From NCBI GenBank assembly GCA_900073065.1, contig FJOG01000025.1:930001-994000 (forward strand): a DNA stretch of 64,000 nucleotides, read 5' to 3'. Made by a program: the position numbers and the translations under genes. Under the pieces are notes generated by a model. It worked only from the letters and a program-made list of their open reading frames with translations. It did no database searches and had not been told where the DNA came from. Shown in pieces: positions 17,416 through 60,910 of the stretch. The number at the start of each line of letters is the position of its first letter. Within the stretch, counting starts at the first letter, position 1. Source of the stretch: Phialocephala subalpina (Eukaryota; Ascomycota; Leotiomycetes; Helotiales; Mollisiaceae).

Positions 17416-19282
17416 ATGACGAACGTCACTACAGTAGATCCTCTCAATCCGGACTGGTATGTCAAAACTTGCCTTTTTGTAGAGAATTTGGGAGCCGAGA
17501 CCGTCTTTCGAGATAGCTCGACTCCTGTGCTCTTCGATTGACTAGGAGACCTCATACTAATTACTCTATAGGCTCAACAAGGGCGACAATGCCTGGCAAC
17601 TTACAGCCGCGTCCTTGGTCGCTCTGCAGAGTGTACCTGGTTTGGTTGTGCTCTATGCCGGTGTATGTATAAATCCTGCCCTCAATCTGCCATTTCGTAG
17701 GGAGTCAGGCTCGAATCCTAAGCATCATTTGAAACACCATAATAACTTCTTGTAGTGGGTGAAGCACAAATGGGCAATCAACTCAGCATTCATGGCATTC
17801 TATGCCTTCAGCGCTGTCTTACTTTGTTGGGTTCTGTACGCGTATAAAGCTGCGTTTGGTGAGCAGATGTTGCCATTTGTAGGCAGACCTGGGCCTGCTA
17901 TTACAATAGGTAAGTCCACCGTAAAAGTGCGAGATCTTGATATGCCTCAAGAGCTCTGCCAAAGAATGCAAGAAAATCACATACTAATATACTCAACAGA
18001 CTATCAATTGCGGCAATCAGTCCTTCCTACCGCGAACCTCGCTCAGAACTTCCCACAAGCGACAATGGTGTATTTCCAGTTCGTTTTCGCGGCCATTACC
18101 CTCGTCCTAATCGCTGGCTCCTACCTCGGCCGCATGAACTTTTTCGCCTGGATGCTCTTCGTACCCCTCTGGCTCACCTTCTCCTACGTCGTCGGCGCTT
18201 TCTCTCTCTGGGGAGGTGGCTTCCTATTCCAGATGGGAGTCATTGACTACTCAGGAGGATATGTTATCCACTTGTCCGCAGGCACAGCTGGTTTCGTGGG
18301 GGCATGGTGGATTGGACCTCGCACACAAGAGGATCTTGAGGATAACCAGCCGAACAATATTTTGATGATGTTAGTGGGAGCTGGTATCCTGTGGATCGGT
18401 TGGAACGGTTTCAATGGTGGTGATCCTTATGCTGCGAGTCCGGATGCGGGTGTTGCTGTGCTGAATACTAACATCTGTACTGCGGTCTCGTCGCTGGTCT
18501 GGGTTGGAATGGACTTAGCGTATTTCCGCAAGCCGTCGGTTATTGGTGCTATTCAGGGCATGATTACTGGGCTTGTGGCTATTACTCCTGCTGCTGGTGT
18601 TGTTGCTGGTAAGTTTGCTCCTTGCTTCACAAGGAGAAGAAACGATAGACTAACTTCGTCAGGTTGGGGTGCCATCTGTCTCGGCATTGCATCTGGAACT
18701 ATCCCATGGGTCTCAATGAACATCGCCGGCCGCCGCATGACCATCTTCCAACACGTCGACGACACCCTCGAAGTCTTCCACACCCATTTTGTCGGCGCCC
18801 TCGTCGGCGGCATCGGAACCGGTATCTTCGCGACCTCAACCGGCTGCGCTGCCTTCGGCATCACCAACCATGGGGGGGCAATCGATGGCAACGGCAAACA
18901 AGTCTGGCTCCAAATCGTAGGCGGTCTATTCATCATTGGCTGGAACATCGTCTGGACTTCTCTCATCATGTGCTTCATCAAATTCGTCCTCAGAGTTCCT
19001 TTGAGAATGACGCAGGAACAGTTAGATATTGGTGATTATGCTGTTCATGGAGAGGAGCCTTACACTTTTGCGCATTATAATATTAAGCATCCTAGACCAC
19101 CGCTCATGAGGAGAAGAACGACGAAGAAGACAGATGAGGAAGAGAGTAGGGGTGCGGTGCTTATGGGTACTAATCCTGCTGACACAGTTGAGAAGGCGCC
19201 GAGTAGTGAGGGGAGTGTGGGGAAGAAGGGGGGAGATGAGATGAGTGTCGGTGTTAGTACGGCGCTGCCTATTGATGGTTGA
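17416..19282 (+). CDS. Ammonium transporter (Mep/Amt family)
   Basis: Five exons, 17416-17456, 17572-17662, 17756-17909, 18000-18608 and 18663-19282, giving 504 residues. Eleven membrane helices are expected. Family marks are [40 protein letters not shown] (the conserved pore region), [14 protein letters not shown] and [20 protein letters not shown] with the pore histidine. The cytosolic tail has an ITQ/MTQ-like helix then a Ser/Lys-rich end. It takes up ammonium across the plasma membrane. Introns 1 (115 nt) and 2 (93 nt) are introner-like elements. Intron 3 (17910-17999, 90 nt) and intron 4 (18609-18662, 54 nt) are multiples of three without stops, so the frame reads through them. Comparison with the family (ITI|DYQLRQ, VVAG|WGAI) shows they are introns. 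Confidence 0.93.
17457..17571 (+). repeat. Introner-like intron, family B' copy 2 (ammonium transporter intron 1)
   Basis: A 115-nt GT-AG intron homologous to GH28 intron 2 (12582-12706) from donor to acceptor. It holds a near-perfect stem: GGGAGCCGAG pairs with CTCGACTCCT about 20 bases on. Confidence 0.85.
17663..17755 (+). repeat. Introner-like intron, family C copy 1 (ammonium transporter intron 2)
   Basis: A 93-nt GT-AG intron matching, on the opposite strand, intron 2 of the broken MFS gene (38049-38158). Both start GTATGYATAAATCCYGCCC, share CCATTTCGTAG and AAGCATC.TTTGAAAC, and end TAACTTCTTGTAG. Confidence 0.88.
17910..17999 (+). repeat. Possible degenerate introner-like intron (ammonium transporter intron 3)
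   Basis: A 90-nt intron whose 3' end (CACATACTAATATACTCAACAG-like) resembles the ATACTAATT...ACAG/ATAG ends of family B. The remainder does not clearly align. It is a multiple of three and stop-free, so retention would add 30 residues. Confidence 0.35.
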
Positions 19283-20016
19283 ATGATGGAGGGGGGATAA
19301 TGGGATGAGGGAATTGGGAGTTGGAGCGCTTGATGATACCTGTCTGTTGTACTTCTTTGTTTGTTGCGTTTATAGATTGTGTAGGAGGAATCATACTTGA
19401 GATTGGATGTTGATGTTGACTCTCTATTCTTTCAGCTGATTGCCGTCCCTTTTCCTCTCTTCTTCCCCATGTTCCATCCCATCTGTTAGAAGTCGATCAC
19501 TCATTGCGGTCTGCTGCTATTCCGATTGTTTGTGATTGTTTACAGGCGTCCAGGGTAACGTTCCCAGCGGCCAGTCACCAAGCGATCGGATTCTCCCCAT
19601 GATCGTCTGCCTAACTCAACACCCCGAAGCGGCCCGAACGAACCCTGCGAGCTGAACCTCCCGCCCCCAAATATTGTTCTTGGCAGCGCTTCAACCTCAC
19701 TTTCCAACACCCTCACTAGGTTTTCTCCGTCCCCTTGATTGTTACATTTCCTGCAAGCTGTCGGACTTTAGAGGTTCAGGGGCTCGCTCGCTATTTTGAG
19801 TGACTGGAGAAAGGGAAAGGAGATAGGGCTGAGGGTGAATGTTGTCATGCGTAGGAATTCTTGAAATATATGTTGAGTCCACTGCATTTTGTTGTGGTTT
19901 CGAAAGTCTGAATCATCGTGTTTTCGTCTAAGTCTTTGGATATTGCATTATTTTCAGTCAGATTTTACACTCGCGGTCGAAGAGCATCCGCATTCACAGC
20001 AGTAAAAGAAGTCAAC
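19283..20016. other. Intergenic
   Basis: Terminator of the ammonium transporter and promoter of the HET gene. The HET frame is open back to 19918, but the ATG at 20017 is the first good start. No other feature was seen. Confidence 0.4.
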
Positions 20017-22293
20017 ATGGCCGTCCCACAGCGGTTCAGTCTCAATGCCCTCCCAGGCCAGATCGCCCAACTCGATCAACGCATCCAAAGAATCGAGTCA
20101 GCCCTAGACCAAATCCTCCAACGCCTCAGCATGCCCAAACTCGAAGCCTTATCCCTACCAAAAGAGCCTGAGAAAGTCGTCGAAATGCCAAAAACAGGTC
20201 CATATATTTACAAACCCCTCGATGCTTCAAAGAATGAGATCAGAATCCTTATGCTGCATAGCAGTATCAAAGATGATAACGAGCCAGTGAGAGCAACACT
20301 CCAGCATGTTGCTATGGAAGACGATGTGAACCCTGGTGCGATTGCTAGGATGGCACCCGCGTTGAGGTTGTTTAAGGCGTTGTCGTATACTTGGGGGGAT
20401 GCGAGTAAGAAGGTTAATATCACACTTGATGGACATCAGTGTCCGGTTACGGAGAATCTGTTTGCGGCGTTGAAAAATGTGAGGAATTCGAATAAGGCTG
20501 CGATCGCGGCGAATGCCCATACAGGGAAAGGGGTCGTCTCGTGCTGGTGGATTGATGCTATTTGTATCAATCAGGATGATGTATTGGAGAGGAACTCTCA
20601 AGTTGCGATGATGACTATGATCTATAAGAGGAGTCATGGGGTTCATGTCTGGCTTGGGGATGCGGATGAGGACTCAGATATGGCGATGGATTTGATAGAG
20701 AAGATTGCGAAATATAGGCCGGTGGGACCGGGCGATAAAGAGATCGTGTACCCGGATTGCAATATGGAAGAGAAGGTGAAGCATTGGAAGGCCTTGACGC
20801 GGTTGTTCCAGAGACCGTGGTGGAATCGAGTCTGGATTCGGCAGGAAGTGGCAGTACCAAGGTTTGCTACTGTGCAGTGTAAGCGTCTTCATCTCGAGAA
20901 GTATCAAGCTAACTTAGTATAGGTGGTGCTAAAACGGGCCAGTTAGAACAGATATGTAACGTGGCTGGAATTCTTAACACTTTGAATGAGCAGCTTGGCT
21001 ATCAGCCAACTCAACTGCAGTTGGAAGGATACAATGTCGATCGGTCTGCCTCGACAAGCGGTCGATTGAGGATCTCGTGCTATCTCCGAGCCACGATGCT
21101 TCAGGAGCTCCGTCACGATCTTGGTCGAGGTATGACGGTGAAGTATGGAGACCTGACGGATTTGCTGTTCCACACCCGTTCTTGCCAAAGCACTGATCCT
21201 AGAGATAAAGTCTTTTCGGTCCTTGGTCTGGTCGATCCTACCATGTATGGCGTGAAGCCGGATTATCGAATCACCCTGGATCAAGCACTCAAAACTGTCG
21301 CTCGTGCCGTTATAACGAAGAAGCAGAGCCTCGACATATTGTCGGGAAGCCAAAATGCCGAAGGAGAGAATGGACTGCCAACATGGGTACCAAACCTCAC
21401 TGAGGAATGGAGAGCGCGACCTCTAAAGACTAAGGTTCTATATTCTCCTGGTGTACCGGACGAGCCCGACTTTACATTCGAGGCAGAAAATGACTCTGTC
21501 CTGCGAGCAAACGGTCGTACGGTCTCTTTTATTGCAGCCGTCTGCGATGATGTGGTAACCGCTAATGCCACCACTGACCAGCTCGATACTTTGTATCGGA
21601 ACTGGAAGGCTTTCATATTTGCGATGGTAAACCATATCCAATTGGACTGGGATGGGAAACGAGACTTTCGTGACCTGACTGAGAAGCAACCTGACCGAAA
21701 ATGGCTTGAGTTCCTATCTCTGGGAGCCGAGAATGGACATTGGTTGCGCTTCGCAGAGGACGGGTCTGGAAGGCTCTTGCCGGAAAAGGGGGCCGCTGCT
21801 GAAAATGCATTCATGAACCAAAAGATGGTGAACAGCCTTCTGCTTCCAAAGGCCGACGACGAGGAAGCCATCAAAGTCAATCCGTACAAGAAATACCATC
21901 AGAACCTTCGTAAACATGGAATTGGGAGAAGACTATCCTACACGTTCGACGGATCTGTTGGATTGGTCCCCAACGATGCCAGAGTGGGAGACCAAGTCTG
22001 TGTTTTTAGTAACACTTACTATCCTTTCGTTCTGCGTAAGGTCGAGAATGACAAGCATGTAGTCATCGGTGAAGCTTGTAAGTATTCAGCTTTCATACTT
22101 TTCCGGCAAAAATGTCCCATTTCAGGAAGGACATTTCGATGTCGAGAATCCTGGGACCAGTCCCGGACTTTGATCAAGAAGATACGTGTAGAAGAGACTG
22201 GCTGACTTTCCAGATTTCCCAATCTACAAACCGTATCAGGTGCCTTATAAGGAGGGGCGCAAAGTCGAAATGACACGCTTCTCTATCGTGTAG
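20017..22293 (+). CDS. Heterokaryon-incompatibility (HET) domain protein
   Basis: Three exons, 20017-20878, 20923-22077 and 22214-22293, giving 698 residues. A short coiled-coil-like stretch comes first (QIAQLDQRIQRIESALDQIL). The HET domain follows with its three blocks: ALSYTWGD, WWIDAICINQDDVLERNSQV and IYKRSHGVHVWLGD, then RPWWNRVWIRQEVA. HET proteins trigger cell death after fusion of genetically different hyphae; the partner is unknown. I placed the last intron at 22078-22213 because it joins VVIGEA to YFPIYKPYQV and a TAG at 22291-22293, a natural HET C-terminus. Without splicing the frame runs to a stop at 22205. That 136-nt intron contains two perfect inverted repeats. Confidence 0.85.
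22078..22213 (+). repeat. Hairpin-bearing long intron (possible introner-like element)
   Basis: A 136-nt intron in the HET gene with AAATGTCC...GGACATTT (8-bp perfect stem, 11-base loop) followed by GGGAC-CA-GTCCC. The branch-like CTGAC lies close to the acceptor. No second copy is visible in the window. Confidence 0.4.
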
Positions 22294-22713
22294 CCGGTGA
22301 GCAATTGGAACTGGAGAGACTTCTGAATTTCTATCGCTTGATGGAAGAGGTTGGTAAATCGTGGCGGATGACGTCGAATTTGCTTTGTGACAGATGGAGG
22401 TAAATGTCTTTGTACAATAGCAATATGATTCAAACAAAGGCTAGTGGAAGCCATTCAAAAACTCTCAAACTTTTGATAGAGTATGCGCGAGCTGCGAGAA
22501 ACAATTTTTAGGCAACCAGATAATGAAGAAGAGAGGAAGCCCAGCTTAGGAAATAGAACCCTAAATCTCGGAACCCGGAAAAAGTGGCGTTCCGCAGCAG
22601 TTGCAGTCAGCCCGCTCCTCCATCTGTGACGATCCAGTTTCATAAGAACAAAGACTGCCTCCCTCTACGATTCCCTCCTCCATTTCCCTTACTCACACAT
22701 CACAACCGCAAAG
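22294..22713. other. Intergenic
   Basis: Between the HET gene and YKT6. No gene or repeat seen. Confidence 0.4.
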
Positions 22714-23508
22714 ATGAAGTTGTACTACATTGGCGTGTGTCTTTCGAATCCCTAAGTGAGGGAACAGAGCTGACCGCTATCAGATAATCAAGAACCAAGA
22801 GAAGCCCTCCCACGAGCTAGTCGCAGAGAAGGACTTGAGCGCATACTCGCGATTCACACGTAATAAGTACGATTCCCACTCGCAAAGGCAGATGGAGCAA
22901 GACTGACGTCGTGGGAATAGCTATGGAGAATTCATGACGCTGTTCAGCAAGACAGTCGCCGAGAGGACTCGACCCGGCCAAAGACAAGATGTCGAAGAAC
23001 AAGGTTGGACCTACCCTCTTTCGACAGATGGCGAACTGACCACAAGTAGATTACACATTCCACGCCTACGGCCGCACCGAAGGTATCGCTGGCATCATCA
23101 TGTCAGACCACGAATACCCCGCGCTCGTAGCCCACCAACTGCTCTCTAAAGTCGTCGACGAGTTCCTGGCCAAGCATCCTCGATCGTCTTGGGCTACTTC
23201 GAACCCTACCCTCTCTTTCCCTGAATTGAAGGACTATATCGTGAAGTACCAGGATCCTCAGCAGGCAGATTCGATTATGAAGATTCAGAAGGAGTTGGAC
23301 GAAACGAAGATTGTGCTGCATAAGACGATTGAGAGTGTGTTGCAGAGAGGAGAGAAGATTGATGATTTGGTGGCGAAGAGTGATGGGTTGAGTGCGCAGA
23401 GCAAGATGTTTTATAGTAAGTTGTGGAGATTCCGTTGTGATTCGGCATGGATACTAACGGTGAACAGCACAAGCAAAGAAGCAGAACTCGTGTTGTGTTC
23501 TTATGTAG
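22714..23508 (+). CDS. YKT6: Ykt6, R-SNARE (v-SNARE) with lipidation motif
   Basis: Five exons, 22714-22734, 22784-22866, 22921-23003, 23050-23415 and 23468-23508, giving 197 residues, the usual Ykt6 size. The first exon is only 7 codons (MKLYYIG). The longin domain spans about residues 1-125 (YTFHAYGRTEGIAGIIMSDH). The SNARE helix follows (MKIQKELDETKIVLHKTIES, with the zero-layer Arg in LQRGEKIDDLV). The protein ends QNSCCVLM: the two cysteines and CAAX-like end carry palmitoyl and prenyl groups. Ykt6 drives membrane fusion in the Golgi, endosome/vacuole and autophagosome pathways. It is convergent with the Rab gene. Confidence 0.95.
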
Positions 23509-23792
23509 GTGCGTTTGGGATCGGCGTTTTCATACCTTTGATACAGTTCCGGCATAGCAGTTTGTGTAGTAAGATTGTAAATGGGCTCGCAATATTACAT
23601 CGATGGTTTTTTCACAATACAGATGCTAGGAGAGGTTGTGATGCGTGAAAGGATCATGAAATCCATTGAATCAATGCTCAACTCCGGATGCTATGCCACC
23701 AACCAACTCCAGTCCAATGCAGTCATTATCCATCATTTCCCATATCATAGCATCCCAAACATCCAACCCACATCCAACACCGGGTATCTAAA

Positions 23793-24882
23793 CTAACAGC
23801 ACTTCCTCCGAGTCTTAACATGCCTATCTGCAGCACCACCATTCACGTCGTTTTCCTCAATGTAACTCTCAACCGGAACTCCAAACCAACTCCTCCTATC
23901 CCTCCCAACCCTAAAGCTTCCGCCAGGTCTCGCGTGATCGAAATACCCATCCCCTCCATCAATACCAGGCGTAGCACTCGGTGTCTGAGCCGCACTCGCC
24001 AATCCATCCTGTAACTTCCTATTCTGCTCCACCAATTTTCTGGTGATGACTCTGAAGACTTCCTCTACGCCCTCTCCATTCTCAGCAGACACTTCATGGC
24101 AGCAATCCCAGCCCACTTCCTGTCCCCAGAACCCACTACTCCTCTTCGAGCTCGGGCTCCTCGCTCCATCCAAAGCATTGTTACTCCCACCACCCTGACC
24201 CAACCAACTCCCTCTGTACACCCCTCCTCCCATTCCCTCCAATATCCCACCCGAAGAGCCAGGAGTCGCAGTCGCAGGCGGCGTACTGCTCATCCCAGGA
24301 GCCAAATTATCTGCAACATACGCAATGCAACGCTCGAACGGCACTTGACGGATTGAAGGGTCTCTGGCTACGAGATCGGATTTCGTGCCTACGACGTGGA
24401 GGATTATATCGGGAGGGAGGTTGCGCCGGAGTTCGGTGAGCCAGACGCCCATTTCTTCGAAAGAAGAGTTGTCTGTTATGCTGTAGCAGAGGATACAGGC
24501 GTTTGCGCCTCTGTAGTAGAGTCTTGATATTGATCTGTCATGGTTTCTGTAAGCAATTGAAAGCTCTCAATTTCCAGATTCCAGATTTCGGGCTGCCATA
24601 GGAAAATTTGAGTTTAGAAGAGAGTTTATAACCAATGCACGGAATCTTCAAGAAAGCAAGCACGTACCTGAAGCGCTCCTGCCCCGCTGTGTCCCATATT
24701 TGCAATCGTACAACGGTATCCGAATCCTCGTCTACCACTCTCTTCGTCAAGAAGCTCGCGCCAACCGTGCTCGTCGTACTAGCAGGAGAGAACTGATTCT
24801 TCACATATCGATGCACGAGTGATGTTTTCCCCACGCCCTGCGATCCGAGTACCACTATCTTAGCCTCCAAACTTTGTGCCAT
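23793..24882 (-). CDS. Rab-family small GTPase with extended hypervariable region
   Basis: Two exons, 24882-24668 and 24546-23793, joined over a 121-nt intron, giving 322 residues. The start MAQSLEAKIVVLG at 24882 leads directly into the G1 loop GSQGVGKTS. The effector region (TTSTVGASFLTKRV), G3 (WDTAGQERFR) and G4 (TKSD in place of NKxD) follow. The C-terminus is RRKCC, a double-cysteine geranylgeranylation site. Some 100 residues rich in Gly, Ser, Thr and Pro are inserted between G4 and the late SAENGEGVEEVFRVITRKLV helix (G5 SAENG), so the protein is far longer than usual (about 200-220). It should act in vesicle transport; the closest subfamily (Rab5/21/22-like) is not certain. The frame stays open 57 codons upstream of the chosen start. 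Confidence 0.82.
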
Positions 24883-25902
24883 CTTTTGCTCCTCCTGTCC
24901 CTGGTCTCTTCTGTACTGTGGTTCGTTACCAGCTAGAGGACCTGGTCGTTTCTGTGTCTGTGTACCTAGTCCGGTAGGTCGAGTTTTGAGGTACGCAGTG
25001 GCGTTCGTTGGTGCCACGTCGAGATATGGTGTGCGACATGCACTGGATCGCACTGGATCAGGAGAGTGTGAATGAAGAGAAGGATTCGATTCGTGTGGCT
25101 GTGTATTGTACGGTAATGTACTCGTACTCGTGAGATGTGATGGGAATGGCGAAAGGTAGAACTCGCGGAGTGCGTCTGCTTCTCAGCAGGTCAAGAGCAC
25201 AAGAGCTCACTGCCTTTGCCACTGCACTTGTTCCTGCTTTTGCAATGTCTCATATCAGCGCCTCATCATATGCACGAAATATGCAGCTCAGTCTCTGGTT
25301 TTCGTTTCAGCTCACTTCTTTCAAAGAGGAAAATGCAAGAACGAAAAGGCACGAAAGTAAAGTCGCGTCAAAAACAACGGAACGGTTGAATGGAGAGCGG
25401 CATGTAAATAAACAGTATTTGTTAATTTGTTATGGTTTCTAGCCGTGTTTGCGGGATCAAGGCTTGGTGGAGATACTTTAATCGAGATTGCGGATGACGA
25501 TATTTGGGGTGCGCATAGCCCGGCTGAAGCATCCCTGTACGGTCGTCTGCGAGGCTATGGAAATCTGGATAGGGAATTTATCACGTGGGAGCATGACTCT
25601 GTTCTTTGTTAGGCTGGTGGAGGAACACTGGGATGGGGAAAGGTCGCCTTGTGATCAGCAAGTTTGAGTCAGTTGTCTGACGGTTTGGGGACGTTGGTGA
25701 GAACGACTTCCTGGGCAGTGGAGGGCATTGGCTAAGAGGAAAAGGGGGGTGAAGATGCTGATGTAAGTTCAAGGATCTTGGTCATTTCGGGAAGGTGGCT
25801 GAGAAGGGCATGAGATGGCATCAGAGTCGTTATATAGTCTATATGGCATCAAATATGTACAAGTCCAGCAGAATCTGGTATCTATTCAACAGTTTCTCCC
25901 AT
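24883..25902. other. Intergenic
   Basis: Promoter of the Rab gene and 3' flank of the flavocytochrome gene. No supported gene in 1 kb. Confidence 0.4.
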
Positions 25903-34555: not shown

Positions 34556-34577
34556 ATGCCCTCGAAGCCTGCTACTA

Positions 34578-35138
34578 NNNNNNNNNNNNNNNNNNNNNNN
34601 NNNNNNNNNNNNNNNNNNNNNNNNNNNNNNNNNNNNNNNNNNNNNNNNNNNNNNNNNNNNNNNNNNNNNNNNNNNNNNNNNNNNNNNNNNNNNNNNNNNN
34701 NNNNNNNNNNNNNNNNNNNNNNNNNNNNNNNNNNNNNNNNNNNNNNNNNNNNNNNNNNNNNNNNNNNNNNNNNNNNNNNNNNNNNNNNNNNNNNNNNNNN
34801 NNNNNNNNNNNNNNNNNNNNNNNNNNNNNNNNNNNNNNNNNNNNNNNNNNNNNNNNNNNNNNNNNNNNNNNNNNNNNNNNNNNNNNNNNNNNNNNNNNNN
34901 NNNNNNNNNNNNNNNNNNNNNNNNNNNNNNNNNNNNNNNNNNNNNNNNNNNNNNNNNNNNNNNNNNNNNNNNNNNNNNNNNNNNNNNNNNNNNNNNNNNN
35001 NNNNNNNNNNNNNNNNNNNNNNNNNNNNNNNNNNNNNNNNNNNNNNNNNNNNNNNNNNNNNNNNNNNNNNNNNNNNNNNNNNNNNNNNNNNNNNNNNNNN
35101 NNNNNNNNNNNNNNNNNNNNNNNNNNNNNNNNNNNNNN
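34578..35138. other. Assembly gap (561 N)
   Basis: A run of unknown bases inside the first phosphatase-like copy. It is immediately followed by a GAA/AAG trinucleotide repeat. Confidence 1.
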
Positions 35139-35165
35139 GGAAGAAGAAGAAGAAGAAGAAGAAGA
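35139..35165. repeat. (GAA)n microsatellite at the gap edge
   Basis: About eight GAA/AAG units adjoin the gap. They would encode a Lys or Glu run depending on frame. The repeat probably caused the assembly break. Confidence 0.85.
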
Positions 35166-35994: not shown

Positions 35995-36640
35995 TCAGGT
36001 TGATCCCAGGCTTGCACCTCTACCTTGCCAGATATAAGATTACCTACACCTCTCAGGAAAATTACACCTACTGATGAGGACGACCCACCGCCACCCCTGC
36101 GATGATTATACAGATGAGGCTACGTTGTCCGACTTGAGGTCAACGGCGGGATGAATCCGTAGAAAATTTGCTTTAGAGGCAGACAGATATTAAAAGCATG
36201 TTAGTTTCTTCTTCTTCTTATTTTTTAAATCACAAGTTGATCGGTTTGTGGCAAGTAACCTCCATGGGAGAGTGGCGTTGCGGACGGATAGACACTAAAG
36301 TACCTTACAGGTTTTACACCTTTTTTCCTTTTTACATGATAATTAGACAGCTGGCTTAGCTACAGTAGCTAGAGGATAGCTATACCAGAGGGTAGTTGCA
36401 CGTCCGCCTGACCTACTTCCTGAACTGCATGCCTTTCGACCTCTTCACACACAATACGCGCATACTATTCCTGCCTTGATAATATCTTCTTCATAACTTT
36501 ACTACTTCTTTCTTTCGCTTTTCTTACTTCAATTCATTTGAAACTCGACGACCGTTAACACTAAGCGCAAAGACAATAAGATCGCCTCAACTGATCAAGA
36601 CCCTTCACGCGTCTTGCTCATATACAGTCACACCGCGAAT
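35995..36640. other. Intergenic spacer inside a tandem duplication
   Basis: Bases about 36230-36430 resemble bases about 37560-37710, downstream of copy 2. Both share GCGTTGCGGAC, an AATTAGA..GCTGGCTTAGCTA block and a GCATGCC block. This indicates that the phosphatase copy and its 3' flank were duplicated together. Confidence 0.55.
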
Positions 36641-37519: not shown

Positions 37520-38048
37520 ACACATTGATACTAAAAGTTCATTAAATTTTGCTTCTAGTTTTGATTGACACCTCGACAGGCAAAATGTCACCATGGAGAA
37601 ACGCGTTGCGGACAGGCCATAAAAGTACGTTGTTTTCCTTTTCGTTTTCCCCTGCATAATAATTAGATTGCTGGCTTAGCTAGCTCGGATTACATACCGC
37701 ATGCCCTTGAAAACTGTACTTTCCAAAGCTCGGATCTTCTCCATACAAGATCCCGAACCCCAACTATTCCCTGTATCTATCACTGTGTTCCTGGAAGTGA
37801 CAAAGACACCCGCCCTCAAGCTTTCCAAACCCACGATTTCCTCTCAACCGCACTCCCTACCCTAACTGTTCCCACACACACCGTCGCTGCAACCAACAAA
37901 GCAGCATCAAACCACACAACCCCCTTCCACCTCCCCTGATCAAGTCCGCTCCTAACTCCCAAAATATTTCCACCCGCCGGACCTCCAACCACCGCTCCTA
38001 GGCCACGCATGAAATACATGAACCCATTCACACTAGCATAATTCCTCA

Positions 38049-38158
38049 CTACAAGAAGTTAGTAAGTGGTTTCAAAGGATGCTTGGGAGTCGAGGAGCGA
38101 GCTTTTTGGGAGCTCGACTCCTACGAAATGGTAGAATCCGGGCGGGATTTATGCATAC
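38049..38158 (-). repeat. Introner-like intron, family C copy 2 (MFS pseudogene intron 2)
   Basis: A 110-nt GT-AG intron read on the minus strand, homologous end to end with ammonium transporter intron 2 (17663-17755). It contains a perfect 9-bp inverted repeat GGAGTCGAG/CTCGACTCC that is only partly kept in copy 1. Confidence 0.88.
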
Positions 38159-38735
38159 CCCAAACACCTGCCCAACCATAGTCGGAAACAACGTATTATA
38201 CCCTCCTCCCGCAATCCCAAGGGCCGACAACAAACGCGAGCCAGAGCCCCTTGTCATTTACTACAGATACAGCGCTTAGCCAAAGACCTTGAGTGGCGAT
38301 TGTGCTGAGGAGTGTCATTGCGAAAAGTGTGTTTTGACGCCCGAATTTATCTCCTGCGAATCCGATGAATGTTTGACTTGCACAAGAAACTCCATTCGAG
38401 ATCGCGAGGAGGGTGGCAGCGAATGAAGCAGAGTATCCGAGCGCGATACTAAATTGCGGAAGAAAGATACCAGTAACAAGTTCCCAGCCGCAGATAGAAA
38501 CGCAGCAAGGATCGAGAACAGGAATGCTGGTTTCTTAGCCGTGGCGAGGTCGATATGTGTTGGTCTTCGATGGAGGAAGCGAGATGGTGCTGCTGTGAGT
38601 GCGATTGGAGTTGCGATAACCAGGGCGAGGAGAGACAGGAAGCGGAGTGTCCATCGGGGCCGAGATTCGAAAGGAGGGCTTGGATGGCTGGTGAGAGCGC
38701 AAGTCCGCCTACGCCGGTGCCGGATAAGATGAAAC

Positions 38736-38884
38736 CTATACCCAAGATCTCGGTGTCAGTGCTCCCATTTCACTTGTTTCAAGCACTCTAAATAGGAGAG
38801 TAGAACATCCCAGGAGCCTCTGGATATTCAGGACTCTCGGAACAAAAGGGAAAAGGGAATATTGCTCTAAGAAGGTGGGATTAC
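38736..38884 (-). repeat. Introner-like intron, family A copy 2 (MFS pseudogene intron 1)
   Basis: A 149-nt GT-AG intron. Its start (GTAATCCCACCTTCT) and its last 21 bases match the DUF4863 intron at 5212-5350. Splicing joins SALG to FILSGTGVGG. Confidence 0.87.
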
Positions 38885-39416
38885 CTAGTGCTGAGCCGCG
38901 GTGGGAGGTGAAGTATTCTGGTGCGGTGCTGAGGATTGGGAAGTATAGGATTGAAGAACCGATCCTGTAGAGCAGGCCTTGAGTGAGTAGGAGATGCCAG
39001 ATTTGCGAGCTGAGACTGGCGAGGAGGAAACCGAGGGACATGAGGAGGACGCCACTGAGTGTTATGCATTGGCGGCCTCGAAGGATCCAGAACTTCTTAT
39101 CGTCGATAAGTGACAAGAGGGGATTGACGGCGATACTTCCTCCCCATGTTAAACCTGCACCCAATGTCCCTACTAAGGCGAGCAAAGCGCCGGAATTCTG
39201 AGATGGTGGAAGCATTGTTTGCTGAGAGCTGGTGTAGTAGCCTTGGAAGACGCCGTATGATTGATTGATGCCTACCACAAGACAAACAGTGAAGAATCCT
39301 GACAGCAATACCACGATCTGCCTTTGCCGTGTGACAGGGCGAAGCTCGAGTGAAGCAGATAGAGGAGAGTCACGTGCCGACAATGCATCGATCTCGATAT
39401 CCTCTGTTTGAGCCAT

Positions 39417-51425: not shown

Positions 51426-51596
51426 GGGAGCTGTGTTGGGATGAAAATGTAGCTCAGAAAATTGAAACTATTGCTTGTCCGGGGAATGAGAATGACAGAA
51501 TTGCCTCTGTGAATGTGTGAGCAGCTTTGTTCATTAGGTATCTCATCACAAGTGAGCCATCCAGGCCTCACTTCCTCTCGCCTTTTCATCGGGCCT

Positions 51597-53033: not shown

Positions 53034-55582
53034 ATGGCAGGACTCAAGACGCTCTATGAGCCGAATCTAGATTTAGAGAACGCGCTGCATACAAACTTTG
53101 AGTACGTCTGCCGTGCCCCGCGATGGTTGTTGTTGACTTTTACAGTGTTGATTACGTCCTTGACTATCGGTTTGCAACAACAAGTGAGCCACAGTGTCCT
53201 TCTTCATTTCGGTTACTGACATTTGGCAGGCAAAGCAGCTGCAGAAGAGGGATTCGTGAAGCTGATTCAAGCTCTCAACGATGTCGGCCTCTCCACCGAA
53301 GTTCGAAATGGAGATAACTGCGCGGTCCTGATATTCGTGAAGATAGCCTCGGATAGACATCTGCGAGCAGAGGTATACCGATCGAGAGTGCAAGACTGGC
53401 TTTATGGCATACGAACAGCAGCCCCCGAGAAGGAAATGCAGACGAATCTGAACCAAGAGCCGATAACCGAAGCAGAAAGATTACGACTCACATACCTCCT
53501 GATCACGAAGCCGAGAAATGAGGGAGGGGCTGGTGTTACACCCAAGAGCGGAGAGTGGAAAGGCGTTGAGTCTATATTCGCTCTGCACGACCATACATTC
53601 AACAAGAAATGGATTAAAGAGTTGGCAGGGAAGACTTTTCTAGGTGCAAAAGACCTGGAAGAGATCAAGGATAAGTTTGGAGAGAAGATTGCTTTTTACT
53701 TTGCATTCTTACAATCCTACTTCTTGTTCTTGATCTTCCCGGCTGGATTTGGATTCGGTGCTTGGGTCCTGCTTGGGAAGTTCTCACCGTGGTACGCCAT
53801 TGTGAATGCTTTCTGGTGTGTATTCTTCGTTGAATACTGGAAGAAGCAAGAGACGGACTTAGCTGTTCAGTGGGGTGTTCGAGGGGTCTCGAAGATTCAG
53901 CATAAGCGGCCGGCTTTCAGACATGAAAGTGTCGTCAAGGATCCTATTACGGGCGAAGACATCAAGGTCTATTCTCCGATTAAGAGACTATCGAGGCAGT
54001 TGCTGCAGGTTCCATTTGCACTTGTTTCTGCTCTTGTCCTTGGAAGCCTGATTGCAGGATGTTTTGCTATTGAGATCTTCATTTCTGAGATCTATGACGG
54101 TCCTTTCAAGACTTACCTGGTATGTGATGTCGAAGACTAAAAGAGTCTTTCTAACTTTTACAGGTCTTCACACCAACTGTAATTCTTACGACTGTGATGC
54201 CAACATTATCAGCAATGTTGACAGGATTTGCTCAGAAACTTACGGACGTCGAGAACTATGAGACACAAGATGGTAGGTTCACCATGAGCAAGGAGTTCTA
54301 GTCTAACTCTCGGTAGCATACGAAGCAGCTATGGTGTCGAAAATATTCGTCCTAAACTTCATCACCTCATACCTCCCTATCTTCCTTACAGCTTTCGTCT
54401 ATGTTCCGTTTGCTCAGATTCTGGTACCGCATCTGGATATCTTCCAAATTGCTGTAAAGCCATTTGCGGAGAATGAGAAGCAGATGACAGCACCCAAGGT
54501 TGGATTCCAAATCAATCCAGACAGGCTGAAGAAGCAAGTCATTTACTTCACAGTCACGGCACAGATTGTCAACTTCGCATTGGAAGTCGTGGTTCCGTAC
54601 GTGAAGCGCAAGGTGTTCAAGAAAGTGAAGGAAGTGAAGGCTGATAGAGCAGCTAAGCGTGGAGGAGGTGCTGCGGATCCAGGTGCAGACGATCATCCCG
54701 AAGAGGCTGCATTCTTGGTTCGAGTGCGGAACGAAGCCGAGCTTAATCATTATGATGTTACGACTGACTTCAGAGAGATGATTATCCAGTTTGGTAGGCT
54801 CATCAGTTGCTTTGAACTAGCGTGTGCTAACCGAGCCAGGATACTTGTCCCTTTTCTCCGTTGTTTGGCCATTGACTGCCGTTTCTTTCTTCATCAACAA
54901 TTGGATTGAACTGCGTGGAGATGCTGTGAAGATTGCTCTGGAGACACAGCGACCTGTTCCTTGGCGCGCAGATTCGATTGGCCCATGGTTGGATGCTCTA
55001 GGATTCTTGGCATGGCTCGGAAGTTTGACCTCTGCTGCCCTCGTCTATCTCTTCACCGGTGATGGCCTTGGGCCCGATGGAGCACCATGGAGCATCAAGG
55101 GATGGGGACTTCTACTCACGATGTTTTTCTCTGAGCATATTTTCCTTGGTATCCAGCTTGGTGTCAGGAAGGCACTGAGCAAGATTGACAGCCCAGGACT
55201 GCAAAAGGAGAGGGCAGAAAGATTTCTCGTCCGAAAGTAAGTTGTCTTTACCCGATCTGCAGTAATATACTTACAATGCTAGGCAATACATTTCCGAGTC
55301 CATGGGTCAAGAAGCTGCTGAGAAGGCAGCTGCCGGCGGTATCGAAGCCGGAGAGAAAATCAGCCGAAGCACTCTCGAGGAAGAGGCTAGACAATCAACT
55401 CTGAAAGGCCATAGAACTCCAGAGGAAAGATTCTGGCAACGCCAAAGAGTTCAAGCTGAGACAATTGCGGTTGGCAGAGGCTTCATTGCGAGGGTACGTG
55501 CCCACAATCTCCAGGAATTGGGTGTCGCTAACATGTGCAGGCTGCGCCTAACGAGACGAAGGAGACGAAGAAAGAATTGTGA
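53034..55582 (+). CDS. TMEM16/anoctamin family protein (Ist2-like)
   Basis: Eight exons: 53034-53101, 53146-53183, 53230-54119, 54164-54272, 54317-54793, 54840-55236, 55283-55493 and 55541-55582, giving 743 residues. The cytosolic N-terminal domain (GFVKLIQALNDVGLSTEVRN, WLYGIRTAAPEKEM) precedes the membrane block that opens with FYFAFLQSYFLFLIFPAGFG, then FWCVFFVEYWKKQE. Later helices are FVLNFITSYLPIFLTAFVYV and FGYLSLFSVVWPLTAVSFFI. FFINNWIELRGDAVKIALET is a highly conserved anoctamin stretch. TMEM16 proteins are lipid scramblases or ion channels; the fungal members resemble yeast Ist2, an ER-plasma membrane tether, and afTMEM16, a scramblase. I chose ATG 53034 (MAGLKTLYEPNLD). Introns are 44-46 nt. 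Confidence 0.9.
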
Positions 55583-56602
55583 TAGGCACATCAACGACGA
55601 AATGATGCATATAGCGCTTAATTAAGTTCAACGAAATACGGGATGGAAGCGAGGATCATAGCAGGTATGGTGTACGGCGATGAATCATGATTTACTGCAT
55701 TGCAGAGTTCCATTTCTACGTCTCAACATTGTGAGTTTCTTTTCGTGTAGCCCACCACTGTCCAAGTTTCCCTCGGTGAGTTTCCTCGGAGGCAAGCTAC
55801 CATTGGACCGTGGCACGCACGTGATAGGTTTTCTATCTGTCACACTTTCTTCATCAGCATCCCATCAGCGGCATGTCGTGCAGCGAATGACGTGCATACT
55901 CCCATCCTTCCAATCCCAAGACCAGTTTTCTCCCACTTTTCCAAATTGGGCCCACATGCTGTGGTAATCATCCTCCTTCCCCAAAATAACCCCGCATCAG
56001 CCCAGCTGGGAATTACAAGGCAGTCAGAGGTCCCGACCCGATAACAATGCTTGTCGCAGCGCTTAATTTGGGCGTTTGAGGGGGGAGCAGGCGGCGTTGC
56101 GTTTATTTTGCTTGAAGCAGAGTTCGGTAAGGGTACAGAAGCATGCGGCTGACGGCGCTGAGCCTGTTCCTGTGCCACAGCCTTGTGTGACAACGAGGCG
56201 ACCAATCTGGACGCCCGTTACGATATGGCGAATAAGAGGTTCCGTTTGAGGTAAGTAGACCTCTTTTAGACCCTCTGAGACCGTTTTGGAAGATTCACTC
56301 AGGTGTTGGTATTTTCGGTTCGGTGAACATGATAGTGTTTGAGTTATTCGTGTTGAGGGAAATGTAGGCTTTCTTTTGGGGCTTGGAGGGCGATACAGGA
56401 GCTGGAGACTGGTATAAGTTTACTGGTTGTCCTGGAACTTTCCATCTATTTCTCAGTTCCGTAGCCGTGTTCTTGGGTTTCTTCTGCTCTTCCCTCTAAG
56501 CTTCTTCTTTGCCTCTATACCCGTTCTTGCATATCATTGATTCTAACTAAGCTATCTCCAAGGACCTACTCCTATTGTCCTAGCACGACTAGAAGATTCA
56601 AA
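55583..56602. other. Intergenic
   Basis: About 1 kb between the TMEM16 and cupin genes. The cupin frame is open back to 56537, but ATG 56603 starts its signal peptide. No further gene or repeat was recognised. Confidence 0.4.
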
Positions 56603-57430
56603 ATGCACTTCTCAGCAACCCTCTTTACATCCGTGGCTCTCCTAGCCAGCACCGTCACCTGTCTACCGAACTCTATACACTCGCTCAACTCTACATCTTC
56701 AGCAGCCTTCACTTCAGCAGCGACAGCCAGCTCCACCGCCACATCCAGCCCTGCAGCAAGTACCAGCTCACCTGGGACAACTACAAACTCCGCCGCCACC
56801 ACCGCCCTCTTCCAAAAGTTGGTCCTCGCGCCCTCCTCCGTCGAGCGTTTCAACCTCCTAACCGACGCCGACCTCCTCTTCAACTTCAACGACTCCTCCG
56901 CCCACCCCGCCGGTTCTCCCGGGGTAGCGACCGGACTGGGCGGGCAACTAGTCCGCGCGGATCAAGCTACATTCCCCGCTCTCTACATGCAAGGCGGCTC
57001 TATGGCACTCGGTTTCCTCGGCCCCTGCGGCTTCAACACCCCACACGTCCACCCCCGAGCCAACGAACTATTCCTAGTCATCGAGGGAAGGTTAAATGCA
57101 TCCACCATGTTGGAGAATGGAGGGAGGAAGATACATAATCTGGTGAATAAGTTGCAAATGACGATCTTTCCGCAGGGGAGTGTCCATACGCAGTTTAATC
57201 CCGATTGTACGCCTGCTACGTTCGTTGCGAGTTTTACGGGCTCTGATCCCGGGGTTGCACAGATAGCGCAAGAGTTTTTGGGGTTTAGCGAGGAGGAGGT
57301 TAATGCTGCGGTGGGGGGACCGGTGATTGTAGGTGGGATGGATGTTGATGCTTTTCGGAGTCGGATTCCGGATAATGTTGTGCTTGGGGTGGAGGGCTGT
57401 TTGAAGAAGTGTGGGATCGAGAAGCGGTAG
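56603..57430 (+). CDS. Secreted cupin (spherulin/germin-like) protein
   Basis: Single-exon gene of 275 residues. A signal peptide (MHFSATLFTSVALLASTVTC) is followed by a 45-residue Ser/Thr/Ala-rich, probably O-glycosylated linker. Then comes one germin-type cupin barrel. Motif 1 reads GFNTPHVHPRANELFLVIEG, with the His-x-His...Glu metal ligands; motif 2 is FPQGSVHTQFN, with the fourth ligand His. Family members bind manganese or other metals, and some are oxalate oxidases or superoxide dismutases. The activity here is unknown. GC-rich in the 5' half. A cysteine-containing C-terminus (GCLKKCG) may form a disulfide. Confidence 0.87.
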   Translation: MHFSATLFTSVALLASTVTCLPNSIHSLNSTSSAAFTSAATASSTATSSPAASTSSPGTTTNSAATTALFQKLVLAPSSVERFNLLTDADLLFNFNDSSAHPAGSPGVATGLGGQLVRADQATFPALYMQGGSMALGFLGPCGFNTPHVHPRANELFLVIEGRLNASTMLENGGRKIHNLVNKLQMTIFPQGSVHTQFNPDCTPATFVASFTGSDPGVAQIAQEFLGFSEEEVNAAVGGPVIVGGMDVDAFRSRIPDNVVLGVEGCLKKCGIEKR

Positions 57431-58820
57431 AGGAAAATGTCTCCCTGAAGTGTCGGGACATTTGGGTGGTCGTTTTCAGCGGTTGGTTTGTATCCGTATT
57501 TGCTTGAGTTAGCGCAGGAGTCTTGGTATGGGTTGTCTTGGGAGTAAAGGCGCTATATTAGCTAGATGAAATTCGATGCATTTGAAGGTGTTGGGTCGGA
57601 CGGTGTTCCACATCTAGCGTTAGACATAGTTGTACCAAGATCGGATTGAAGGGCAGAGATAATGAGATTGGATCGCAATAAACAAGCTCCATATCTCTCA
57701 AAGCCATCAATAAAGACTGCTAGTGCGATATTGTCAAGTAGATGCAAATAGTCCTTGCTTCTTCCCGACTCGTTAGCTGAGCCAGGATTCAGGGGAGATA
57801 TTGGCAGCACAATGCACAGCGTTTTCAATCTCCCAACTTGCTTGGATTTTGTGACCAGTTGGTGAGGCGTAAGTTATCACAACCAGCAAAGTTGCATAAC
57901 ATTGGCATGTGATAATTTGCTTGGAGAAAGTGGGCTTGAGAATGTCCAGGCAGGGCTGGGAGATTCAGAACCTTGGCACTATTATTGCAGCCATCATCAA
58001 CTTGATGCTCGGCATAATTTCTGTTTGATAATAGAGGTAACGCCACAAAATGATTCATCAGACGTGTTGACTGCAAGAATTGTAGGAAATATGTTGGTTT
58101 GTTTTTCGCATGAAAGCAGAATGTGTTCTAAGGCATAGCTAAAAATGCAAGTTCATCGGGCTTTCACCTTCAATTGATATGTATCATCAGTGTTTAAAGC
58201 CTTTCTCGTTCAAGAACATCAACTAAATATGTAAAAATGGAGAGATATATAAAACAATCCCGGCGCGTGGGCTCAAGGAATGGAGAGCGACGTCACGTGC
58301 TTCAGCTGCATTTTCAAACTCGGGTACCTGAAATCTCTCCTTGGAACCTGAACAGCCACCACCTTGACTTCGATATTCTCGGCCTTCAGTCTTGTCTCTT
58401 GTGTCCTTTGGTACTGGGCATGCGAGTGTCATGGATGTAGCAAGTGAGGATGGTGAGGAAGTTTCGCCTGAAGGAAAAGTGGCTGCCTGGTTTTGTTGGC
58501 CTAGTACGACCACTCACGTACGAGCCTTCGTAATCTTCCAAGCGACTAGACGGCTTCAAGCTTACAAAACAACCTCGAGAGGGAATATGAACCACAACTA
58601 ATGCCAGATCCAGGCATCCGAGCTGTTAATATAATGTCCTCGAGCACCTGCAGCAGAGGACCTCCAATGACATCAAATACCCGCACCCCAAGTCCTCAGG
58701 GACATTTGCGGCACTTCAATATGTATGGACTTGTAGGTATATGAAGACATGGAGCAGGAAATGTAAGTGCTGTTTTCTCCTGTCGACATCTTGTCCCTTT
58801 ACTTTGAACTTTCATCCGCA
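57431..58820. other. Intergenic
   Basis: A 1.4-kb stretch. The open frames lack family resemblance on either strand. The GMC frame extends back to 58767, but ATG 58821 starts its signal peptide. Confidence 0.4.
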
Positions 58821-60910
58821 ATGGGAGTAAAGCAAGTTGCCGGCTCTCTCCTGGCCTTTGCAGGATCAGCCTCTGCAGCAGGCTACCTCTCCTACGCCAG
58901 CCAGTTCGGGATCCCAGGTCGAAATGCGAGCTACGATTACGTTGTCGTGGGAGGAGGAACAGCAGGTCTGGCTATTGCAACGCGTCTGGCCCAGAATACC
59001 TCGAATAGCGTTGCCATCATTGAAGCAGGAGGGTTCTACGAGATTGACAATGGGAACACGAGCGTTGTTCCTCGCCTGGGATCTTACGGCACAAGTACAT
59101 CAACAACGACGCTACAAGACTCTCCCACCGTCGATTGGGAATTCGAGACTGCTCCGCAGGCAAGTCTGAACAATGTGCTGGCACATTACTGGCGTGGGAA
59201 GACACTAGGAGGAAGTTCTGCACTGAACAATGCTGTTTATCAACGAGGAACGGTTGGGTCATACCAGATGTGGGCAGATGTTGTTGGAGATCAGAGCTAC
59301 ACGTTTGATGCTCTGCTGCCATACTTTCAAAAGAGTGTGCACTTCACGCCTGCAGATGCAGCACTCAGACCACAGAATGCGTCTATTCTGCCAGTGTCGG
59401 ATGAAGCTTTCAGCCCTTCTAGAGGGCCATTGAAAGTGTCGTACACCAATTACGCTATTCCTTTCGACAGCTGGATGCAGAAAGCTTTCAATGAAATCGG
59501 ACTATCCGAGATTCAAGATTTCGTGAGCGGGAATCTGATCGGGCACCAATACAGTACGTTAGAATGTACCCTCTATTTGAAGCTCTTTGCGAGTATTGTG
59601 GACTCGGCTCCTCTCGGCTCCTTAGCTCCTCGACTCCCGATCATACATCAAATCGCCTACTGATTTATCTATAGCTCCACACCAGACAGAGGCGAAGGAG
59701 CAGACTCGAAGTTCTTCGGAGTCATCTTTTCTAAGAGAGGCATTGGAAAGCTCTCGAACGAATCTCCAGGTCTACCCAAATACCCTTGCCAAGCGAGTTT
59801 TCTTCTCTCCGGATAAGACTGCCACAGGTGTCGAAGTCAATACCGCAGGGAAGACATACACAGTCTCTGCCAACCATGAGGTGATTTTGTCAGCGGGAGC
59901 CTTTCAAAGCCCACAACTTCTGATGGTCTCCGGTGTTGGACCAGCGGCGACGCTCAACAAGTTTTCTATTCCTGTGGTGGCTGATCGCCCAGGAGTAGGA
60001 CAGAACCTGTGGGACCATGTCATGTCAGGTCCTGTGTATCCAGTTGAGGTGGGCAACGTCGCAAAATTCACCGTCCCATCTCTCATTGCCGCCTCGACTC
60101 AGGAGTACCTAGAGAATAGGACAGGAGTGATGACAGGCTACAGCTTCGATTTCATCGGATGGACGAAACTTCCCGACTCCTATCGTCCAGCCCTCGGGCC
60201 CCAGGCACTGGCTGATCTAGATCAATTCCCTTCGGACTGGCCAGAAATCGAGTACGTGATCGCCGAGGCACCAGGAACAGTGCCAGGTGCAAATTACGCC
60301 TTGATCTTTGATGTGCTGGTTGCACCATTAAGCAGAGGAAATATGACGATTCAGTCCAACGACACAAGTGACCATCCAGTCATTGATCCGAACTGGCTCG
60401 GCAGTGCAACGGATCAAAAGCTTATGATCGAAGCTTTCAAGACTGCTCGAGCTCTGTTCAACACGACTGCGTTGAGGATGATTATTACAGGACCCGAGCA
60501 GTCTCCTGGTGAGGCTGTGCAAACAGACGAGGAGATTTTGGCTTTCATCCAAAGCCAGACTGCGACTTTGTATCATGCTAGTTGCACTTGTGAGTACAGA
60601 TGTTGACTGTGGAACAACAAGTACCCTTGCTTGCGAACTCGAAGCTTTGGAGGACTAAGAACGTCACAGGTGCCATGGGAAAGGCAGATGATCCAATGGC
60701 TGTGATCGACTCACATGCTCGGGTTATCGGTGTGCAAAATCTGAGAGTTGTTGATGCTTCAAGTTTCCCTATCCTCCCACCCGGTCATCCTACAAGTACG
60801 ATTTGTAAGTCATCCCCGTATTCCTTACAATCTTCCAGATGAAGCTAAGATGTTTCCTGGCAGATGCACTTGCAGAAAAGATAGCAGACGACATAATGAC
60901 TGGGAAATAA
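58821..60910 (+). CDS. Secreted GMC oxidoreductase (FAD; glucose/aryl-alcohol oxidase type)
   Basis: Four exons, 58821-59553, 59675-60589, 60670-60804 and 60864-60910, giving 609 residues, normal for the family. A signal peptide ([20 protein letters not shown]) is present. The FAD-binding [20 protein letters not shown] (GxGxxG) follows, then the GMC signature [20 protein letters not shown]. Next come [20 protein letters not shown] (second GMC signature) and [20 protein letters not shown] with [11 protein letters not shown], which carries the catalytic His. It oxidises an alcohol or sugar and makes hydrogen peroxide outside the cell; the substrate cannot be fixed from sequence. Intron 1 (59554-59674) is an introner-like element shared with the GH28 gene. 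Introns 2 and 3 are 80 and 59 nt. Confidence 0.9.
59554..59674 (+). repeat. Introner-like intron, family B copy 2 (GMC oxidoreductase intron 1)
   Basis: A 121-nt GT-AG intron homologous to GH28 intron 1 (12232-12360), 47 kb away. Shared blocks are TATTTGAAG, ACTCGGCTCCTC, GCTCCTCGACTCCC, ATCATAC and the TACTRATTTATCTAYAG end. Confidence 0.88.

What the first reader, a model, noticed from the sequence alone, without database searches (positions are those of the whole stretch)
17457..59674. A common hairpin core links the intron families: candidate intron-generating element
Members of B' and C contain GGAGTCGAG-like and CTCGACTCC-like arms, the B copies keep GCTCCTCGACTCCC, and the B members share an ATACTAAT branch-site end. 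Length (93-149 nt versus 45-60 nt for ordinary introns), stable stems, high similarity between unrelated host genes and exact coincidence with splice sites are the known properties of introner-like elements described in Dothideomycete and other fungi. I infer that these are related, recently multiplied introns. Eight copies in 64 kb implies many hundreds per genome.
Basis: partly seen in the sequence, partly recalled or inferred. Interest (0 to 1): 0.88.

Follow-up and report, generated by a model that had tools for sequence, protein, structure and literature searches.

The report
Spreading introns with preferred landing sites
A root-dwelling fungus carries families of near-identical introns that have copied themselves into many unrelated genes, and each family tends to sit next to its own short DNA motif, which could help explain how new introns arise.

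Summary
The window has eight introner-like introns: family A (2), B/B' (4), C (2). Genome-wide there are at least 70 C and 85 B 3' ends (reversed-pattern controls 0 and 1) and 41 A matches (no control). The genome is Phialocephala subalpina or very close. B and C are homologous beyond the hairpin core; A showed no similarity to them. Copies lie mostly in sense inside genes and are absent from paralogues at the two sites tested. Target duplications were not detected in B or C. The hairpin is present, but covariation and folding energy do not support its conservation. Lengths vary in 8-nt steps.

New here: exon bases beside the introns are strongly biased and differ by family (C A|TG(G); B CA|TNG; A G|G, 12 copies), while 58 ordinary intron candidates show no such bias. 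The Hypoxylaceae paper read reports no such pattern for comparable introns. "Many hundreds per genome" is not shown; the window lies on a contig rich in copies. Isolate polymorphism and splicing (RNA) could not be tested.

The parts
5212..5350 (-). Family A introner copy, 139 nt, GTAAGCCCAC...GGGTATAG, G|G flanks
   Evidence: 77% identical to 38735-38885; 41 matches genome-wide, itself included; boundaries
38736..38884 (-). Family A introner copy, 149 nt, G|G flanks
   Evidence: query; boundaries
12232..12360 (+). Family B (B') introner copy, 129 nt, host gene not identified by a search
   Evidence: model R2 109 bits, but this copy was in R2's training set; independent model R1 (C copies only) finds 12269-12352, E 8e-4; flanks tctgcaga / tgactctc
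12582..12706 (+). Family B introner copy, older form, 125 nt, about 0.2 kb downstream of the previous copy
   Evidence: R2 59.7 bits, in R2's training set; R1 finds 12611-12700, E 4e-4
17457..17571 (+). Family B introner copy, 115 nt, first intron of an ammonium-transporter gene (start codon 17416)
   Evidence: in R2's training set (as L001:1428-1542); R1 finds 17471-17565, E 6e-4; the first 295 residues of the spliced protein are 100% identical to a deposited P. subalpina protein (P0001)
17663..17755 (+). Family C introner copy, 93 nt, second intron of the ammonium-transporter gene, before TGG (Trp)
   Evidence: R1 62 bits, not in its training set; Trp in 14 of 20 aligned proteins
38049..38158 (-). 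Family C introner copy, 110 nt, with the full hairpin core
   Evidence: R1 98.7 bits, not in its training set; 39 other places 83-92% identical among 40 scored of 92 candidates; reading-frame evidence ambiguous (L043)
59554..59674 (+). Family B (B') introner copy, 121 nt, in a GMC-oxidoreductase gene
   Evidence: R2 72 bits, not in its training set; PF00732 runs across the spliced junction (protein 1)

Best explanation
These are introner-like elements: short spliceosomal introns, with no protein-coding content noticed, that copied themselves into exons of unrelated genes of P. subalpina or a very close relative in bursts of different age (A and part of B more diverged, C and part of B more alike). 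Shown: multiplication, coincidence with canonical splice sites, mainly sense orientation in reading frames, absence from paralogues at two sites, no detectable duplicated target in B and C, family-specific flanking bases, common descent of B and C. Inferred: the copying intermediate is the intron RNA, put back by reverse splicing into a transcript or into transcribed DNA and then fixed by reverse transcription or repair. Also inferred: the flanking bases are a preference at the moment of insertion, because at the two sites checked relatives have the same residue, because less diverged copies carry the motif more often at several positions, and because ordinary introns lack it. Since the families differ in motif within one genome, I infer that the element itself, not only the host spliceosome, influences its landing site.
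For: Copy number: 70 places of the C 3' end (30 nt, up to 3 mismatches) vs 0 reversed-pattern controls; 85 places of the B 3' end (19 nt, up to 2 mismatches) vs 1; 41 A matches with 40 of 48 candidates scored, no control. Nearest-neighbour identity median 94.4% in 72 C copies and 93.5% in 47 B copies. B-C homology: C profile scores above 15 bits in sense on 34 of 47 B introns vs 0 of 470 shuffles; B profile on 50 of 72 C introns vs 0 of 720. Genic and sense: sense frame longer than antisense in 39 of 46 C copies (6 shorter, 1 tie) and 30 of 33 B (3 shorter); sense frames >=400 in 28/46 and 20/33 vs 13% of 1945 random window points. Pfam domains run across the junction in 13 of 19 spliced proteins scanned, which I picked from 71. 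Empty sites: 17 of 19 other NCS1-permease places and 21 of 21 other sugar-transporter places align across the intron position, counted by reading the tables. Exon-intron matches of 2 nt that a TSD would leave: 0 of 72 C, 1 of 47 B. Flanking bases, corrected for codon position (48 C and 32 B copies): C -1A p 4e-11, +1T and +2G p 8e-21; B -2C p 1e-11, -1A p 8e-15, +1T p 3e-7, +3G p 4e-10. TG after 62 of 72 C copies vs 3 of 58 ordinary intron candidates, p 3.5e-22. Family difference: -2C 12/72 vs 35/47, p 2.6e-10; +2G 64/72 vs 19/47, p 2.9e-8. Family A: -1G 12/12, +1G 10/12. Half of C nearer its consensus: +2G 35/36 and +3G 23/36; other half 29/36 and 17/36. Residue at the site: Trp in 14 of 20 aligned ammonium transporters; Met at the NCS1 site also in bacterial Mhp1.
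Against: No RNA-seq was seen, so splicing is inferred from reading frames, domains and one deposited protein. The exact splice gave the best frame in only 32 of 46 C and 17 of 30 B copies; nearby introns may be part of the reason. C flanks share slightly longer words across the element than permuted pairs (3.32 vs 3.09, sd 0.10), about 2 sd, which I did not explain. Two antisense matches above 15 bits appear in the B-profile search of C introns, as a near-palindromic core may give. The age trend of the motif was not tested for significance and is absent at C -1A (22 vs 23 of 36) and +1T (34 vs 34). Flanks come from the best-scoring copies, not a random sample; family A has 12. The ordinary-intron control holds 58 candidates while a decoy search gave 17. 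A one-nucleotide TSD (G) cannot be excluded for A. A DNA search with the 17457 copy of B found only one other place. No intron-target base pairing stands out, so how the element would influence its site is unknown.
Confidence: 0.8

Rival explanations
1. The flanking motifs are not insertion preferences but are kept by selection, because these particular introns splice well only in that exon context.
For: Families with different splice-site sequences have different flanks; A has the G|G context that I recall as canonical.
Against: 58 ordinary intron candidates show no flank motif; at several positions the copies nearer the consensus have the motif more often (untested); -1A in B and C is opposite to the G usually favoured by U1 pairing (recalled).
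Confidence: 0.15
2. DNA transposition without target duplication, for example a rolling-circle (Helitron-like) element that inserts between A and T and carries a GC-rich hairpin.
For: A|T insertion in 43 of 72 C and 30 of 47 B copies without a detectable TSD; GC-rich hairpin inside the element. The Helitron A^T rule is recalled, not from a call.
Against: Sense frames predominate, whereas DNA transposition should also leave intergenic and antisense copies; family A inserts at G|G; termini are GT...AG, not TC...CTRR (the latter recalled). I did not search for an autonomous partner.
Confidence: 0.07
3. Microhomology-guided recombination: a cDNA or DNA copy of the intron with a few nucleotides of source exon is pasted in where those nucleotides match.
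For: Downstream conservation in C falls off with distance (T 68/72, G 64/72, G 40/72); each family would keep the flanks of its own source gene.
Against: Upstream conservation in C is patchy rather than graded (-1A, -3C, -6A but not -2).
Confidence: 0.2
4. Ordinary introns duplicated along with gene duplication.
For: Many host genes belong to large families (transporters, HET).
Against: Host genes are unrelated (sugar transporter, desaturase, P450, GMC, PKS, HET and others); no two of 72 C copies had similar 20+20-nt flanks at the threshold used; paralogues lack the intron at two sites.
Confidence: 0.01

Closest known systems
Fungal introner-like elements of Dothideomycetes (van der Burgt 2012 recalled, not held; Collemare 2015, PMC4457414, parts 1-2 of 4 and passages read)
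   Same: Near-identical introns in unrelated genes, several families of different age per genome
   Different: Different class (Leotiomycetes, recalled for Phialocephala); family-specific flanking motifs; an 8-nt tandem repeat in the hairpin arm; no structure signal beyond composition detected
Sister stwintrons and related canonical introns of Hypoxylaceae (PMC8469720, part 1 of 9, section 3.6 and passages read; PMC12403724, outline and abstract)
   Same: Seamless integration at new positions, no target duplications, internal symmetry
   Different: That work found no pattern in bordering exons and no phase bias; here both are strong. No [D1,2] architecture (0 of 131 copies) and no complementary words over 7 nt between the terminal 25-nt stretches
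Introners across eukaryotes (Gozashti 2022, PMC9860276, sections 7-9 and passages read; supplement not read)
   Same: Ascomycete families there also lack TSDs and TIRs
   Different: The sections read describe insertion preference by gene, GC and nucleosome, not a family-specific base motif; Leotiomycet-, Helotial- and Phialocephala do not occur in its main text
Group II intron retrohoming (recalled)
   Same: Insertion by reverse splicing at a sequence-specific site without target duplication is what the pattern would resemble
   Different: Spliceosomal GT-AG introns; no ribozyme or protein seen; intron-exon pairing not supported

Membership tests
Fungal introner-like elements | Many highly similar introns in unrelated genes of one genome | tested here: met
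   unrelated host domains
Fungal introner-like elements | Canonical donor, branch site and acceptor at element ends | tested here: met
   GT...TACTAAC or TACTRAT...AG in aligned copies; no RNA evidence
Fungal introner-like elements | Seamless insertion without TSD or TIR | tested here: met
   for B and C; two sites compared with paralogues; a 1-nt TSD is not excluded for A
Fungal introner-like elements | Longer than ordinary introns | tested here: met
   93-159 nt vs median 52 in 58 ordinary candidates, which were sought only at 45-76 nt, so the contrast is partly set by that limit; published mean intron length of P. subalpina is 80.2
Fungal introner-like elements | Stable secondary structure | tested here: inconclusive
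   hairpin present, 91% of cells paired, not above permutation; z -1.98 to +1.14 in 11 folds
Fungal introner-like elements | Recent gain, presence/absence between relatives or isolates | tested here: inconclusive
   absent from paralogues at two sites; no fungal relatives' DNA available
[D1,2] stwintrons | GGU start and internal acceptor followed by URWGY | tested here: not met
   0 of 12 A, 0 of 47 B, 0 of 72 C, although all 12 A copies are preceded by G
Helitron-like rolling-circle elements | TC start, CTRR end, A^T target (recalled) | tested here: not met
   ends are GT...AG; A|T target in 43/72 C and 30/47 B, 0/12 A
MITE / cut-and-paste elements | TIR and TSD | tested here: not met
   a 1-nt TSD remains open for A

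The most novel reading that the evidence does not exclude
Each introner family carries its own target specificity (C: A|TGG, B: CA|TNG, A: G|G), so a spliceosomal intron, through its RNA, selects where it is reverse-spliced. This would be a group II-like, sequence-directed retrohoming run by the spliceosome, with the specificity able to shift as a family evolves (between B and C).
Probability: 0.25. Interest if true: 0.85.

Novelty: new variant of a known kind. Interest (0 to 1): 0.62.

Why it matters
How spliceosomal introns are gained is a long-standing question, and ascomycete introners are described as the outlier without transposon hallmarks (PMC9860276 section 8). A genome with three families, each with its own flanking motif, gives a handle on the integration step: the motif predicts empty target sites, can be changed in a reporter, and helps to separate reverse splicing, microhomology and DNA transposition.

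Tried and rejected
Intron-exon base pairing (EBS/IBS-like): upstream of C the raw consensus GGATGCTA looked complementary to the intron word AGCATCC, but a scan of all 7-mers did not single it out (score 3.01, eighth in the list), and after codon-position correction only -6A, -3C and -1A remain upstream. Not supported for C; the scan was not done for B or A.

TG carried by the element rather than the target: not favoured, because the residue occurs in relatives at the two sites checked.

Consensus structure: RNAalifold gave weak structures on the gapped alignments (energies -1.94 and -1.84); the named 12-bp hairpin showed no covariation.

Gene duplication and [D1,2] stwintrons: rejected.

Genome-wide counts by covariance model were not possible, so counts rest on patterns and capped BLAST. 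Isolate polymorphism and relatives' DNA: no fungal collection was available to me.
Full report
What was checked. Motif positions were reproduced, and an all-against-all comparison of the window found five repeat pairs, four of them the introns discussed here. Splice boundaries give eight copies: family A at 5212-5350(-) and 38736-38884(-); family B/B' at 12232-12360, 12582-12706, 17457-17571 and 59554-59674; family C at 17663-17755 and 38049-38158(-). Three of the four B copies (all but 59554) were in the training set of the B model; neither C copy was in that of the C model. The intron 17910-17999 shares ATACTAAT only and matches neither model at E<=1.

Organism. The first 295 residues of the spliced ammonium transporter encoded from 17416 are 100% identical to a deposited Phialocephala subalpina protein; the next listed hit is Mollisiaceae sp. 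at 93%. The genome held here has 68.1 Mb in 119 contigs; the published assembly has 69.7 Mb in 205 scaffolds, 2.7 introns per gene and mean intron length 80.2 (PMC5148876, passages). I did not prove strain identity.

Copy number. The C 3' end gives 70 places (37 forward, 33 reverse), 0 in the reversed-pattern control. The B 3' end gives 85 places, 1 in the control. Family A gives 41 matches with 40 of 48 candidates scored and no control. BLAST with the C copy scored 40 of 92 candidates (40 matches); with the 59558 B copy 41 matches, 40 of 47 scored; with the 17457 B copy only one other place. These are lower bounds. The 155 B and C ends are uneven: contig C54, which holds the window, has 15 vs 2.3 expected (Poisson p 2.8e-8). 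Five of these 15 are in the window, which was not chosen at random, so the excess is partly one of ascertainment; ten lie outside.

Common descent. A profile of 72 C introns scores above 15 bits in sense on 34 of 47 B introns, against 0 of 470 dinucleotide shuffles; the reverse search gives 50 of 72 against 0 of 720, with 2 antisense matches above 15 bits. The best matches cover C profile positions about 35-105 of 112 and B positions about 33-128 of 135, that is the core and the 3' part, and in some copies nearly the whole length. A sequence-only model built from C copies finds the four B copies of the window at E 4e-4 to 8e-3. An exact 15-mer of the core occurs 47 times with 0 controls; where I assigned the place to a copy it is in sense in B and in antisense in C. 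Family A (two sequences) gave no match to either profile.

Anatomy. C is modally 112 nt (25 of 72 copies). Of 63 copies with a well-matching 5' half, 56 differ from 112 by multiples of 8, owing to a tandem repeat CTCGRCTC of up to five units in the right arm of the hairpin. B is most often 139 (13 of 47) or 129 nt (10). The hairpin of C has 12 pairs; 687 of 756 cells pair, no better than permutation (mean 685.8; 647 of 2000 reach it). Eleven introns folded singly had z from -1.98 to +1.14; one of them was the unrelated intron 17910-17999. The structure therefore has no demonstrated conservation after insertion.

Where they sit. In C, 39 of 46 copies have a longer sense than antisense frame (6 shorter, 1 tie); in B, 30 of 33 (3 shorter). 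The exact splice point gave the best frame among exact, shifted and antisense readings in 32 of 46 C and 17 of 30 B copies. Pfam domains run across the spliced junction in 13 of 19 proteins scanned (one of them, L093, just below Pfam's cut-off); 5 had no domain and 1 had its domain elsewhere. I picked these 19 from 71 spliced frames. The host families are varied. In two genes, paralogous places in the same genome align across the intron position: 17 of 19 other NCS1-permease places (three of the 17 contain a stop; I set aside one row as the other half of one of these genes) and 21 of 21 other sugar-transporter places (two contain a stop). I counted these by reading the tables. Loss of the intron from all paralogues is formally possible but less simple than gain.

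Insertion sites. For each family the exon bases touching the intron are far from random. C (72 copies with both ends): -1A 45, +1T 68, +2G 64, +3G 40. B (47): -2C 35, -1A 39, +1T 31, +3G 29. A (12): -1G 12, +1G 10. After correction for codon position, C (48 copies) keeps A(-6), C(-3), A(-1), T(+1), G(+2), G(+3), and B (32 copies) keeps C(-2), A(-1), T(+1), G(+3) at p<0.001. Ordinary intron candidates from the same loci and the window (58; a decoy search gave 17) have nearly flat flanks: TG after 3 of 58 and A|T in 4 of 58. C introns are mostly phase 1 (33 of 48, p 1e-6). The families differ from one another (p 2.6e-10 at -2, 2.9e-8 at +2). Comparing the half nearer the consensus with the other half: C +2G 35/36 vs 29/36, +3G 23/36 vs 17/36, but -1A 22/36 vs 23/36 and +1T 34/36 in both; B -2C 19/23 vs 16/24, -1A 22/23 vs 17/24, +1T 18/23 vs 13/24, +3G 18/23 vs 11/24. 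I did not test these differences.

Was the motif there before? After the C intron of the ammonium transporter the next codon is TGG; tryptophan is present in 14 of the 20 proteins I aligned (of 120 listed, the window's own species included), the others having M, I, L or Q. At the NCS1 site the interrupted codon is ATG, and methionine is also found in bacterial Mhp1. These are two cases only.

Mechanism. A duplicated target would leave matches between exon and intron ends; at 2 nt there are 0 of 72 in C and 1 of 47 in B. Words shared between the two flanks are slightly longer than in permuted pairs in C (3.32 vs 3.09, sd 0.10) and not in B (2.96 vs 3.07, sd 0.13). No complementary word over 7 nt joins the terminal 25-nt stretches. 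Predominantly sense genic location and seamless insertion fit RNA-based insertion by reverse splicing, as others proposed for fungal elements (PMC9860276 section 8; PMC8469720 passages). What is new, as far as I found, is that target choice appears sequence-dependent and family-dependent. Base pairing between intron and target could not be shown for C, so the way the site is chosen is open.

Literature. Searches: 'introner-like elements' (22 papers); introners + intron gain + fungi (9); Phialocephala + introner (0); Phialocephala subalpina + intron + genome (21 held, 15 listed); helitron + introner (2); target-site terms (14); introners since 2022 (12); introner + Leotiomycetes (1, the Cladosporium fulvum / Dothistroma genome paper; passages seen). 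In this open-access library I found no report of these elements in Phialocephala. For Hypoxylaceae the authors state that no pattern was seen in bordering exons and no phase bias. Supplementary tables of the large survey were not read, so P. subalpina might be listed there.

Noticed in passing
window 1-64000 (contig C54 of G000): C54 carries 15 of 155 B and C 3' ends against 2.3 expected (ten outside the window), an excess with no explanation yet.
   Followed up: partly
L122 (G000:C82:63410-63800), minus strand: Two B copies lie almost head to tail; the first copy's acceptor is followed after 7 nt by a GTATGA donor-like word, suggesting a micro-exon or an insertion beside an existing introner.
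   Followed up: no
L034, L065, L090 and window 17457-17755: Several loci hold both a B and a C copy in the same orientation within about 0.7 kb; four pairs of B or C ends lie closer than 1.5 kb genome-wide vs 0.5 expected.
   Followed up: partly
C copies genome-wide: Strong phase-1 bias of C introns (33 of 48), consistent with A|TG often falling in Met codons.
   Followed up: partly
L134 (G000:C19:8340-8600): A 159-nt B-like intron with an extra GC-rich stretch whose core resembles both B and C by eye.
   Followed up: no
window 34578-35138: A run of 561 N.
   Followed up: no
window 36262-36362 and 37591-37682: A further 70% similar pair, nature not examined.
   Followed up: no
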